Shown: piece after piece, positions 1 through 6,835 of the stretch
Position numbering within the stretch: the first letter of the stretch is position 1
Layout of the letters: each line of letters starts with the position of its first letter
Assembly: GCA_022824265.1 (NCBI GenBank)
Contig: JAJEAG010000022.1
Location: 1-37,390 of the forward strand
Source: Candidatus Poribacteria bacterium
GTDB lineage: Bacteria > Poribacteria > WGA-4E > WGA-3G
Reading direction: 5' to 3'
Length of the DNA stretch: 37,390 nt
Translations under genes and position numbers: made by a program
Notes under the pieces: model-generated
The model's database searches: none
Seen by the model: only the letters and a program-made list of their open reading frames with translations
Told to the model about the DNA's origin: nothing

Positions 1-695
1 GTTGGATCAAAATGCGTCAAGTCTTACGTTTTGTTGGAAATATTATCAAGGTGACAATCTCAAGGACAGCACATCGTTGGTTTGCATCTATCACCGTGGC
101 AACAGAGGACACCGAAGTCGTTGATAACTCAACGCACCCTGCTATCGGTATAGATGTGGGTATCAATACACTGGCAACCTTGAGTGATGGGACGAAGTAT
201 GATAATCCAAGACCCCTCAAACGTTATGAGAGAAAACTTAAACGTGCCCAGCACAAACTCAGTCGGAAAGTGCTAAAATCTAAAAACTGGTTCAAACAGA
301 AACGGAAAGTAGACCGTATTCATTACCGTATTGCTTGTATTCGCAGGGATGCACACCATAAAGCGACAACAGAGATTGTCAAGAATGCATCTACTATCGG
401 TATAGAAACACTAAAAGTAACTAATCTGCTAAAGAATAAGAAGTTAGCAAAAGCGTTATCTGATAGTGCGTTAGGCGGATTTCTCTCAAAACTCAAGACC
501 AAAGCAGAGGCACACGCGGTTTGTGTCGTAGAAGCAGACCAGTTTTTTGCGAGTAGCAAAACCTGTAGCAGTTGTGGACATAAGAAAAAAGAACTGCTGC
601 TATCAGAAAGAATGTATCATTGCGGTGTCTGTCAATATCAAAAAGACAGGGATGTCAACGCTGCAATAAACCTTAGACACCTCGCTGTCGGATAG
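1..695 (+). CDS. tnpB: TnpB RNA-guided endonuclease, partial at 5' end
   Basis: IS605 OrfB/TnpB is an ancestor-like relative of Cas12 that uses an RNA made from the element's 3' end to cut DNA. The frame is open to base 3, so the ATG at 12 is an internal methionine and roughly the first third of a normal 350-400 residue protein is missing. Numbering from that Met, the RuvC residues are D48 (in GIDVG), E131 (in IGIETL) and D213 (in DRDVNAAINL), and the zinc finger is C184/C187/C203/C206. All visible catalytic and zinc residues are intact and the protein ends normally, so this copy could be functional if its 5' part is intact. It differs from the right-hand copy at five residues over the shared part (A44V, H80R, V122I, V172I, H202Q). 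Confidence 0.9.
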   Translation, partial: WIKMRQVLRFVGNIIKVTISRTAHRWFASITVATEDTEVVDNSTHPAIGIDVGINTLATLSDGTKYDNPRPLKRYERKLKRAQHKLSRKVLKSKNWFKQKRKVDRIHYRIACIRRDAHHKATTEIVKNASTIGIETLKVTNLLKNKKLAKALSDSALGGFLSKLKTKAEAHAVCVVEADQFFASSKTCSSCGHKKKELLLSERMYHCGVCQYQKDRDVNAAINLRHLAVG

Positions 696-3979: not shown

Positions 3980-5071
3980 CTACGCAAGTACTTGCATTTC
4001 ATATTCAGCACGCGTAATTTGCCGAAACCGATTGTGACGCAAATTCTCATAGAAAACCCATGAATCTGGAATTGTGCCTGAAGCAAAAATACCAAACTGT
4101 GTATCAGTTGCACAGAGATAACTCTTCAAAGGTTCATGGCTATATTCACCATGATCGGAACTTGTGTCCAATTTGCACTCTACTATAGTGATAAAGTTTC
4201 CTTCTGCATCGCAAAGCGCAAAGTCTGCCCTGCTATTGAGTGTTCCTATTTGAATTCTACACTCTCTGACAATTGAATATTTTGAGAATTTTGATTCAGA
4301 AAGATATACAACAGCGGCTTCTACCACATCAAGTTCCTTAATCCGTTCGTTAATAATGAATCCGAAGTCCTCTTTTCCCTGCTTTTCTGCAAGTTTCAAG
4401 GCGTTTTGTAGATCTGCCTTTGCCCCGCTAAGATCATTTAAACTGGATTTTGCTTCACCTCGACTTGTATGGATACTGGCATAATCAGATTTTATAGAAA
4501 TTGCCAAGTCGTATGCAGAAATAGCTTTTTCTGATTTACCTCCCTTCCAAAGTAGGCAACCAATCGAAAAAAGAACAATGACAAAATCAGTGTCAATCTG
4601 TCCTGATAGAGTATTAGGAGAATCACTGATTTCCCAAGTATTTTCAACGGTAGCACTTTCTGCAAGTTCTGGAAAAAGTGAATCTAACTTTGGAAAGTGT
4701 TGATCCTCATACATCTTAATAAGTAGACTAACCAGTGTCATAGTTGCCGACAAAGGATGGGTTTCATCTTCACCGACACTGTAGATTAAATCGTCAAGGA
4801 CTCCTGAAAGTTGTTTGTATTCCGTTTCGGTTATCACAACACAACTAAGGTCTTTGTTCCGATTTACTATACCAGAGAAAATGTCTAATAATCTGATTAG
4901 CCACTGTGCAGCACTTTCAGGATAAGGTGTGACATAAACAAATTCCTTGGTGAAAGGTTGTGTTGACGCAGGCAATGTCCGTTCTTGCAAGTTGTGTTCC
5001 CTTAAGACAGGTGGCACAAATGGTGAAAATGTTGATAACAGATTTTCAGGTATCGGCATTTCAGTTAACAT
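3980..5071 (-). CDS. HigA-like N-terminal segment fused to TPRs and a PD-(D/E)XK nuclease-like domain
   Basis: Multidomain protein of 363 aa. Residues about 80-130 (TETEYKQLSGVLDDLI, then LVSLLIKMYEDQHFP) follow the pattern of the region before the helix-turn-helix in HigA/Xre-type antitoxins. No HTH follows; instead there are TPR-like helices at about 162-230 (for example KAISAYDLAISIKSDYA). The C-terminal domain, about 250-363, shows E270, D283 (RADFALCDAEG), E298-x-K300 (IVECKLD) and FGIFASG, the PD-(D/E)XK arrangement of type I restriction HsdR N-terminal-like (HSDR_N_2) domains. The ATG lies 6 bases after the HigB-like stop, and its Shine-Dalgarno bases are inside the last HigB codons, so translation is probably coupled. 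I infer it takes the antitoxin's place or adds a nuclease or sensing module to the pair. The domains are recognised by eye. Confidence 0.7.
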   Translation of the reverse strand: MLTEMPIPENLLSTFSPFVPPVLREHNLQERTLPASTQPFTKEFVYVTPYPESAAQWLIRLLDIFSGIVNRNKDLSCVVITETEYKQLSGVLDDLIYSVGEDETHPLSATMTLVSLLIKMYEDQHFPKLDSLFPELAESATVENTWEISDSPNTLSGQIDTDFVIVLFSIGCLLWKGGKSEKAISAYDLAISIKSDYASIHTSRGEAKSSLNDLSGAKADLQNALKLAEKQGKEDFGFIINERIKELDVVEAAVVYLSESKFSKYSIVRECRIQIGTLNSRADFALCDAEGNFITIVECKLDTSSDHGEYSHEPLKSYLCATDTQFGIFASGTIPDSWVFYENLRHNRFRQITRAEYEMQVLA

Positions 5072-5077
5072 TATTCA

Positions 5078-5419
5078 TTACCTTTTCCTGTTCCATGCAT
5101 TGTACTCAGCGTGTGTCAGCACTTCATGAATAACAACTTGCTGAGACTCATATCGCATAACTGTGATTAGTCGTGCTTTGTTACCGCCAATGTTGAAGAC
5201 TGTAAACGTAGTTTCTCGGTTGCTATATGGAACTTGCTGTATAAGTTGAAGAGGTGTTCTTTTTTTTACGAGGTCAGCGTGAGGAAACATTTCTCTCAAA
5301 GCAGTCACAGAACTGAAATTATTCTGTTGTACCAGATTAATCCAACGGAGAAGTCCTGGTCTTGAGGTAGAGTGTCTTTCTACAAATTCTACAAGTTTAT
5401 GTTCATAAATGATCTGCAT
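5078..5419 (-). CDS. higB: HigB-family type II toxin (mRNA interferase-like)
   Basis: HigB toxins (PF09907 type) are RelE-fold, ribosome-dependent mRNA interferases normally encoded just before the antitoxin HigA. The signature is clear: FNIGGN at residues 75-80 followed by R83, and VLTHAEY at 100-106, as in the YgjN/HigB group. Length (113 aa) is slightly above the usual 95-105, with extra residues around 52-70. The next gene, 6 bases on, is not a standard HTH antitoxin but carries a HigA-like segment. A perfect 9-base inverted repeat lies 20 bases upstream of the start and may be an operator. The Shine-Dalgarno sequence is weak. Confidence 0.85.
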   Translation of the reverse strand: MQIIYEHKLVEFVERHSTSRPGLLRWINLVQQNNFSSVTALREMFPHADLVKKRTPLQLIQQVPYSNRETTFTVFNIGGNKARLITVMRYESQQVVIHEVLTHAEYNAWNRKR

Positions 5420-5438
5420 TGTTTAATTGTCTCAATAG

Positions 5439-5466
5439 TGGGAATCGTGAACACAACCGATTCCCA
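5439..5466. promoter_or_regulatory. Perfect inverted repeat upstream of higB; candidate operator
   Basis: The arms TGGGAATCG (5439-5447) and CGATTCCCA (5458-5466) are perfect complements separated by 10 bases. The position, just upstream of the toxin gene start at 5419, fits an autoregulatory operator of a toxin-antitoxin operon. There is no T-tract on either side, so a terminator is less likely. The usual DNA-binding antitoxin domain is missing from the operon, so what would bind here is unknown. Confidence 0.5.
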
Positions 5467-5707
5467 TCCTGATGACAATAACAGATGTAAACTCAGATGT
5501 TTTGATAGGAATGTTATCACTCTTAAATTTATGCTTCTACATTAGATTCGTACTAAGTAAGTACGTGAAATTATACATCAATTGGAGATATATTTCAAGG
5601 CAAATAGATTACAATCTATCAGACAATTTCAGTCAATTATTTATGTGGAAATGTTCCGCTTAAAATACTAATGTGCCCTGATGACCTACATATTCTTCTC
5701 AAGTTTC

Positions 5708-6835
5708 CTAATCCTCTTGCTGTTTCCCAAGGTCAATTGCCTTATTCATATCAGCTCTGGCTTCTTCATGTTGTCCGAGAGCCCGTTTAGCTGTACCTCG
5801 ATTGATATAGGCATCAGCGTAATTGGGTTGTAGACTAATTGCCTTGTCATGGTCTGCAATAGCATCTTGATGGTTACCAAGTTCGTTTTCTGATACGCCA
5901 CGATGGGTGTAGGCTGCTGCAGAATTCGGATTAAGACGGATCGCTTCATCATAATCAATAATTGCATCACGATGTTTACCTAACGACCGTTTGGCATTAC
6001 CACGATTGATGTACGCCTCTGTAAAATCCGGTTTAAGTCGTATTGCTTCGGTATAGTCAACAATTGCATTAGTAGGTTCACCCAATTTACTTTTTACAAT
6101 ACCTCGACTGTTGTATGCTTGTGCATAATCTGGATTCAGTCTAATTGCCTCGTCGTAAGCAGAGAGTGCTTGATCAGTTTCATTCTCTTCGGAGTGTAGA
6201 AAACCAATAGAGAAAAATGCCCGTGCCACCAATTCATTATCAACGCCTTTGGCAGTATTGGCGATAGATCTCCATTTCTCTATCGCATCTACGACATTCC
6301 CATCTCGTTGCATTTTATATGCTTCAATAATTGCTCTGTCTTCCAATGATAATTCAGGATTCTTAAGGATGTCTTGTATCGAAGTATTTAATGTATCAAC
6401 CTTATTTGGATTGCTAAAATCTTTACTGGTTAACTGTGAAACGATTGCTTGTATTCTGGCATTGTTCTGCTGAATTTCCTTATGGTATTTTGTAGTTTCA
6501 GTAGCAGATGTTTTAGCGTCAGCAGCATGTTGTTCCGCTGCTTTGACATGATCCAACATTTGGGATTGTAGATCGCCAAACTTCATATAGATTAAATACG
6601 CTGCAATACCAGTCACCAAAGGAATAAGGAGTGTAAAGAATACAAGAACTATACTGGTAAAGGATAACCAGCGATTGATTGACCTCGATCTTTCATCAAG
6701 ATACGTACTACGTAATTCGTTGAATTGCTGCTGTATTGAGGGATTAACTTCCGGTATTTCATTCGATCCGTTTATCGCTTCATCATCGGTAGGATCAGGT
6801 GTCTGCAATGGCTCATCATTTACATCTTCTTTCAT
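5708..6835 (-). CDS. Membrane-anchored TPR protein
   Basis: Protein of 375 aa: an acidic, proline-rich cytoplasmic-looking N-terminus (1-50), one strong membrane helix at about residues 58-85 (SIVLVFFTLLIPLVTG and following), a helical, possibly coiled-coil linker with alanine- and glutamine-rich stretches (90-135), and then at least four consecutive 34-residue TPR units from about 205 to 370, each with the consensus AYxxRGxxxxxLGxxxxAIxDYxxAIRLxP. It has no signal peptide. TPR arrays bind partner proteins; the partner is not evident. The ATG has a good Shine-Dalgarno sequence (GGAAGGTGG). It lies upstream of the higB-like pair on the same strand, but 288 bases separate them, so a shared operon is not supported. 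Confidence 0.85.
   Translation of the reverse strand: MKEDVNDEPLQTPDPTDDEAINGSNEIPEVNPSIQQQFNELRSTYLDERSRSINRWLSFTSIVLVFFTLLIPLVTGIAAYLIYMKFGDLQSQMLDHVKAAEQHAADAKTSATETTKYHKEIQQNNARIQAIVSQLTSKDFSNPNKVDTLNTSIQDILKNPELSLEDRAIIEAYKMQRDGNVVDAIEKWRSIANTAKGVDNELVARAFFSIGFLHSEENETDQALSAYDEAIRLNPDYAQAYNSRGIVKSKLGEPTNAIVDYTEAIRLKPDFTEAYINRGNAKRSLGKHRDAIIDYDEAIRLNPNSAAAYTHRGVSENELGNHQDAIADHDKAISLQPNYADAYINRGTAKRALGQHEEARADMNKAIDLGKQQED

What the first reader, a model, noticed from the sequence alone, without database searches (positions are those of the whole stretch)
3980..5419. HigB toxin paired with a HigA-like/TPR/PD-(D/E)XK fusion in place of a normal antitoxin
Seen: a clear HigB-type protein (FNIGGN, VLTHAEY) is followed 6 bases on by a 363-aa protein whose residues 80-130 look like a HigA N-terminal segment, with TPR-like helices and then a D-x-ExK nuclease-like domain (D283, E298, K300) where the HTH should be. 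Known: HigB normally sits before an HTH antitoxin of about 100-140 aa that both neutralises it and represses the operon. Inference: the fused protein may neutralise HigB through its HigA-like part and bring a nuclease or sensor module, making a toxin-antitoxin-nuclease unit that could work as a defence or stress system. I know of no described system with this layout.
Basis: partly seen in the sequence, partly recalled or inferred. Interest (0 to 1): 0.8.

Follow-up and report, generated by a model that had tools for sequence, protein, structure and literature searches.

The report
HigB toxin with HTH-less TPR-nuclease antitoxin
In Poribacteria a common bacterial growth-stopping toxin (HigB) is paired not with its usual small DNA-binding antidote but with a larger protein that keeps only the antidote's N-terminal domain and carries repeat and nuclease-like modules instead of the DNA-binding part; dozens of related pairs show that this is a real, evolving family of toxin-antitoxin systems.

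Summary
HigB (5078-5419, minus) matches PF09907 and the structure of E. coli HigB. The 363-aa neighbour (3980-5071), in frame 6 nt downstream, has a HigA-type N-domain (residues ~50-135), a short TPR (166-236) and a PD-(D/E)XK domain of the HSDR_N_2 family (D283, E298, K300). It has no helix-turn-helix (HTH).

The HigA resemblance is homology: profile comparison with HTH-bearing HigAs gives E 2e-12, and homology ends before their HTH. An AlphaFold2 model of HigB read through into the N-domain has pTM 0.69, as expected if the two dock confidently.

In this phylum HigB is followed, mostly at 3-12 nt, by HTH-bearing HigA, HTH-less mini-HigA, HTH-less HigA-N plus TPR arrays (237-837 aa, many loci), or the nuclease form (8 pairs with intact HigB). 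On the HigB tree the nuclease form is one clade inside the TPR clade. Intact HigB was not seen without HigA-N; HigA-N often survives loss of HigB.

Best reading: a type II toxin-antitoxin module whose antitoxin lacks the HTH and gained TPR, then a nuclease-like domain. Nuclease activity, sensing and defence are untested. New variant of a known kind; PD-lambda-2 is the nearest described layout.

The parts
5078..5419 (-). HigB-family toxin (RelE-like, PF09907), 113 aa
   Evidence: PF09907 1.7e-21; phmmer to E. coli and Shigella HigB 5ycl/5ifg 6e-8; model matches 5ifg_A with TM 0.86 normalised by the target; PADLOC PD-Lambda-2_A 1.1e-15
3980..5071 (-). HTH-less HigA-N / TPR / PD-(D/E)XK protein, 363 aa, proposed antitoxin
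4667..4924 (-). HigA-type N-domain, residues 50-135 (strongest match 80-131); proposed HigB-binding part
   Evidence: HMM of HTH-bearing HigAs 2.9e-6; hhalign prob 97.7, E 2.2e-12; helices 52-71, 82-99, 108-125
4925..5071 (-). N-terminal segment, residues 1-49, predicted largely disordered
   Evidence: pLDDT below 50 at residues 1-9 and 17-48
4364..4576 (-). TPR region, residues 166-236
   Evidence: PF13181 5e-7; helical hairpins in the model
3983..4351 (-). PD-(D/E)XK (HSDR_N_2-like) domain, residues 241-363, with D283, E298, K300
   Evidence: PF13588 8.2e-6; alpha-beta-beta-beta-alpha-beta order in the model; 3ijm restriction-endonuclease-like fold among the matches, E 7.6e-3; motif conservation

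Best explanation
The two genes are a type II toxin-antitoxin operon, toxin first. HigB is a translation-dependent mRNA interferase (inferred from its family). The 363-aa protein neutralises it by binding through its HigA-type N-domain (homology shown; binding inferred from the domain, the gene coupling and the docked model). The HTH that normally represses the operon is missing; TPR was added to an HTH-less HigA first and then, once, in the ancestor of this clade, a PD-(D/E)XK module (order inferred from the HigB tree). The C-terminal modules most likely decide where the complex sits or when it opens, by binding a protein (TPR) and nucleic acid (PD-(D/E)XK); this last step is a guess.
For: HigB is PF09907 and matches E. 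coli HigB in sequence and fold. The N-domain is homologous to HTH-bearing HigAs, which in turn match E. coli HigA 5ifg_B at 2.3e-14. Homology stops at residue ~131, before the HTH part. The HigB stop and the antitoxin start lie 3, 6 or 12 nt apart in most pairs. HigB and HigA-N distances correlate (Spearman 0.62, 0 of 2000 permutations as high), and paralogous pairs that share a genome keep mainly the same relatives on both sides. HTH-less mini-HigAs of about 75-110 aa sit beside HigB in several phyla, so the N-domain alone appears to suffice. Among HigBs found by a family search plus relatives, the few without a HigA-N are fragments, a contig end or a deletion fusion. In the nuclease clade HigB is absent in 4 genomes and broken in 3 while the fused gene stays open in all but one of these. 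G041 keeps HigB and HigA-N but lost the nuclease by stop codons. AF2 of HigB read through into HigA-N: pTM 0.69, against about 0.41 expected if undocked. dN/dS is about 0.1-0.35 in HigA-N, TPR and nuclease for most pairs.
Against: No experiment. The docking inference rests on pTM alone: no PAE or coordinates were available, and no non-cognate control was run. In E. coli HigA helices 3-6 contact the toxin and 1-4 form the dimer (PMC7340258), so the shared region may cover only part of the known toxin interface. HigA-N/TPR proteins also occur without HigB, so the domain may have other roles. Foldseek did not pick out HigA for the N-domain with significance.
Confidence: 0.8

Rival explanations
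1. The fused protein is itself the toxic effector (a nuclease) and the HigB-like protein restrains it, as in PD-lambda-2 where the second gene product was toxic and the first rescued it.
For: Precedent in PMC9519451; the window HigB matches the PD-Lambda-2_A profile; D283/E298/K300 mostly conserved.
Against: HigB is absent in 4 and broken in 3 genomes of the clade that keep the fused gene, open in all but one, whereas intact HigB without HigA-N was not seen. That is the wrong way round for this model. Most relatives have no nuclease.
Confidence: 0.08
2. A variant of the main reading: the PD-(D/E)XK domain is no longer a nuclease but a DNA-binding replacement for the lost HTH, restoring autoregulation.
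For: QxxxY glutamine missing in nearly all HigB-linked copies although present in most other copies; L008 has K300M, L013 has E298A.
Against: TPR-only and mini forms have no recognised DNA-binding domain and still persist; no conserved operator was seen upstream of HigB, the window's inverted repeat at 5426-5479 is not kept in relatives.
Confidence: 0.2
3. Only neighbours: the genes are adjacent by chance and the fused protein has an unrelated job.
For: The fused gene persists without HigB in several genomes; HigB-less HigA-N/TPR proteins exist.
Against: Conserved adjacency and spacing across many loci, partner classes that follow the HigB tree and correlated distances, HigA homology.
Confidence: 0.03

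Closest known systems
HigBA of E. coli K-12 / Shigella (PF09907 HigB; structures 5ifg, 5ycl, 6kml)
   Same: Toxin family and fold, toxin-first order, HigA N-domain homology through the phylum's own HTH-bearing HigAs.
   Different: E. coli HigA has a C-terminal HTH that represses the operon; here the HTH is absent and TPR plus PD-(D/E)XK follow.
PD-lambda-2 (Vassallo et al. 2022, PMC9519451)
   Same: HigB-like first gene (window HigB hits its profile at 1e-15) followed by a HigA-like protein fused to an extra catalytic domain.
   Different: PD-lambda-2B keeps an Xre HTH and carries a peptidase; a third gene is required for defence. Here no HTH, TPR plus nuclease-like domain, no third gene seen.
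Toxin-antitoxin-chaperone (TAC) systems, HigBA-SecB-like
   Same: HigB-type toxin whose antitoxin carries an added C-terminal element that can make it respond to a signal (PMC11980606; PMC6377645 abstract).
   Different: Separate SecB-like chaperone gene and a short C-terminal extension on the antitoxin; none here.
HSDR_N_2 / type I restriction R-subunit N-terminal nuclease (PF13588)
   Same: Domain family and D-ExK motif.
   Different: No HsdR helicase, HsdS or HsdM; fused to HigA-N/TPR; QxxxY glutamine mostly lost in this clade.

Membership tests
HigB toxins (PF09907) | Profile match above the curated cut-off, RelE-like fold, conserved FNxGGN..R and TH-EY motifs | tested here: met
   76.7 bits against cut-off 27; TM 0.86 to 5ifg_A; R83, E105, Y106 invariant and H103 at 90% or more in 49 pairs
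HigB toxins (PF09907) | mRNA interferase activity | not testable with these tools
   needs expression
HigA antitoxins of PF09907 HigB | HigA-type N-domain | tested here: met
   2.9e-6 with an HTH-HigA profile; hhalign E 2.2e-12
HigA antitoxins of PF09907 HigB | C-terminal HTH DNA-binding domain | tested here: not met
   no HTH match in the protein; homology ends at residue ~131
Type II toxin-antitoxin module | Tight toxin-antitoxin gene pair, conserved across genomes | tested here: met
   6-nt spacing and conserved pairs
Type II toxin-antitoxin module | Antitoxin protein binds and neutralises the toxin | tested here: inconclusive
   pTM 0.69 of the read-through model agrees with docking; no PAE, no control, no experiment
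PD-lambda-2 | HigB-like gene A | tested here: met
   PDLC03981 1.1e-15
PD-lambda-2 | HTH-peptidase gene B and third gene C | tested here: not met
   no HTH or peptidase in the 363-aa protein, which hits no PADLOC model; the next long ORF downstream of it is a glyoxalase-family gene on the opposite strand
PD-(D/E)XK nucleases, HSDR_N_2 | D-ExK motif in the family fold | tested here: met
   PF13588 26.3 bits against 25; motif conservation; model topology
PD-(D/E)XK nucleases, HSDR_N_2 | QxxxY motif of RecB/HsdR-type nucleases (from general knowledge) | tested here: not met
   window reads EPLKSY; Q kept only in L016 among the HigB-linked clade, kept in most other copies

The most novel reading that the evidence does not exclude
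A modular, sensor-bearing HigB family: HTH-less HigA-N is a minimal neutraliser to which Poribacteria attach rapidly changing TPR arrays that detect an intruder's protein and release HigB, and in this clade a PD-(D/E)XK domain that acts on nucleic acid as a second effector.
Probability: 0.2. Interest if true: 0.85.

Novelty: new variant of a known kind. Interest (0 to 1): 0.6.

Why it matters
Type II antitoxins are usually described as a toxin-binding part plus a DNA-binding part that represses the operon. Here the HigA N-domain persists without the DNA-binding part: alone in several phyla, and in Poribacteria as a platform for TPR arrays and a nuclease-like domain. This makes it directly testable whether autoregulation is dispensable and whether added modules turn an antitoxin into a sensor. 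The mini-HigAs tested have no model in Pfam or NCBIfam, so such antitoxins are probably overlooked.

Tried and rejected
A profile search of the HTH-less N-domain (A1) against PDB sequences gave nothing; the bridge runs through the phylum's HTH-bearing HigAs. The second HTH-bearing HigA type of the phylum matches the N-domain only weakly (hhalign prob 64). The first genome-contig query was too diverse and was repeated with a tighter alignment. Foldseek of the whole fused protein gives mainly TPR matches with no E below 0.001, so fold search adds little for the N-domain. Plasmid and phage records hold no relative beyond two TPR matches. A conserved operator upstream of HigB was looked for and not found. 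NCBIfam gave no informative family. First-pass classes put some type-2 HTH HigAs in the mini class; one search corrects this.

Full report
What is there. On the minus strand HigB (5078-5419, 113 aa) is followed after 6 nt, in frame, by a 363-aa protein (3980-5071). HigB scores 76.7 bits against PF09907, aligns with E. coli and Shigella HigB, and its model superposes on 5ifg_A with TM 0.86 normalised by the target. The 363-aa protein has a largely disordered start, a three-helix region (52-125), a TPR (166-236) and an alpha-beta domain. The alpha-beta domain belongs to HSDR_N_2. Copies elsewhere in the phylum match that family at up to 6e-10.

Is the HigA-like part real? A profile made only from HTH-bearing HigAs of this phylum matches residues 80-131 at 2.9e-6, and the reverse search finds those HigAs at about 1e-9 to 1e-12. 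Profile against profile gives probability 97.7 and E 2.2e-12 over residues 78-128. Those HigAs match E. coli HigA (5ifg_B) at 2.3e-14 over nearly their full length.

Is the pair conserved? In the 85 genomes of the phylum the protein's relatives appear in 66 at the threshold used, many through the TPR or the nuclease domain alone. HigB appears in 61. After fetching the loci, the gene after HigB falls into classes: HTH-bearing HigA of two types, HTH-less mini-HigA, HTH-less HigA-N with TPR arrays, and the nuclease form. Public records of the near-identical loci name the organisms Candidatus Poribacteria. Counting 112 distinct HigBs with a partner, including some from other phyla, one search has 42 TPR, 37 mini, 25 HTH and 8 TPR-nuclease. 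Spacing is 3, 6 or 12 nt in most long forms.

Evolution. On the HigB tree the five partner classes need 6 changes against a minimum of 4, and shuffles average 58. The nuclease form is one clade (SH-aLRT 91) inside the TPR clade; many deeper forks are weak. Within the TPR and nuclease pairs HigB and HigA-N distances correlate at 0.62. TPR arrays change length quickly: HigBs 96% identical have partners of 433 and 629 aa. Outside Poribacteria the hits in genomes were minis, most of them beside HigB, in Cyanobacteria, Acidobacteria, Chloroflexi, Latescibacteria, Verrucomicrobia, Proteobacteria and others, and no TPR form was seen; but only the best 80 of 467 stretches were kept.

Which gene is the antitoxin? 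In the nuclease clade HigB is intact in 8 genomes, broken or truncated in G038, G042 and G046, and absent in G032, G040, G061 and G063. Among those seven the fused gene stays open in all but G038, where both genes are broken. G041 has stop codons that remove the nuclease but keeps HigB and HigA-N. HigBs without a HigA-N neighbour are fragments, a contig end or the G042 deletion fusion. This fits HigB as toxin and HigA-N as its neutraliser, and suggests that the nuclease is not needed for that.

Docking. Because the gap is in frame, HigB read through into residues 1-165 was modelled as one chain with 49 paired rows. pTM was 0.69 with a disordered linker. A simple estimate gives 0.41 if the two parts were placed independently and 0.69 for an interdomain error near 2 angstrom. 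No PAE was returned and no non-cognate control could be run, so this is support, not proof.

The nuclease-like domain. D283 is invariant in 30 copies, E298 in 29, K300 in 28. L008 (HigB intact) has K300M and L013 (HigB absent) E298A. The QxxxY glutamine is kept in most other copies but, among the HigB-linked clade, only in L016. dN/dS is about 0.15-0.26 in this domain, so it is under constraint, but activity is open. The same domain is fused elsewhere to OB-fold and helix-hairpin-helix domains, which suggests a nucleic-acid setting.

Comparison with the known. Vassallo et al. (PMC9519451) describe PD-lambda-2: HigB-like, HigA-like HTH fused to a peptidase, plus a third gene. Gerdes (PMC11980606) surveys multidomain BECR-fold toxins; the text holds no mention of TPR. 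PMC7340258 gives the E. coli HigA helices used for dimer and toxin contact. Searches of the held library for HigB, HigA and TPR or HTH-less antitoxins found no description of this layout; most subscription papers are not held.

Verdict. A real and conserved type II toxin-antitoxin variant, with an HTH-less antitoxin extended by TPR and a PD-(D/E)XK module. The toxin-antitoxin core is likely; sensing, nuclease action and defence are hypotheses.

Noticed in passing
L252 (G072:C13:41500-47656), minus-strand frame of 1990 aa or more: RNA polymerase beta subunit (Rpb2 domains) with up to three inserted stretches that match the same PD-(D/E)XK domain (residues ~571-688, 764-835, 1761-1826); the first keeps the D and ECK motif, the others look degenerate.
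   Followed up: partly
L225:3917-4162, L234:3932-4159, L151:1407-1733 and similar: HTH-less mini-HigA beside HigB in many phyla, with no informative model in Pfam or NCBIfam.
   Followed up: partly
L025, L028, L030, L033, L063, L064, L065, L067: HigA-N/TPR proteins of 320-355 aa without HigB, several lying directly after a large TPR-rich protein of about 600-1050 aa.
   Followed up: no
window 5426-5479: Inverted repeat (9-bp perfect core TGGGAATCG/CGATTCCCA) just upstream of HigB; not kept in the nearest relatives, and 31 of 500 shuffles reach 8 bp or more.
   Followed up: yes
window 5708-6835: 375-aa TPR protein upstream of HigB, adjacent to the pair in G040, G041 and G038 as well, but not in most other genomes.
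   Followed up: partly
L256, L257, L259, L263, L253, L255, L258, L254, L261: The same HSDR_N_2-type domain is fused to OB-fold, helix-hairpin-helix, and coiled-coil or membrane-type segments across Poribacteria.
   Followed up: partly
window 12-695: OrfB_IS605-type transposase ORF with a Cas12f1-like TNB domain (227 aa) at the window's left edge.
   Followed up: no
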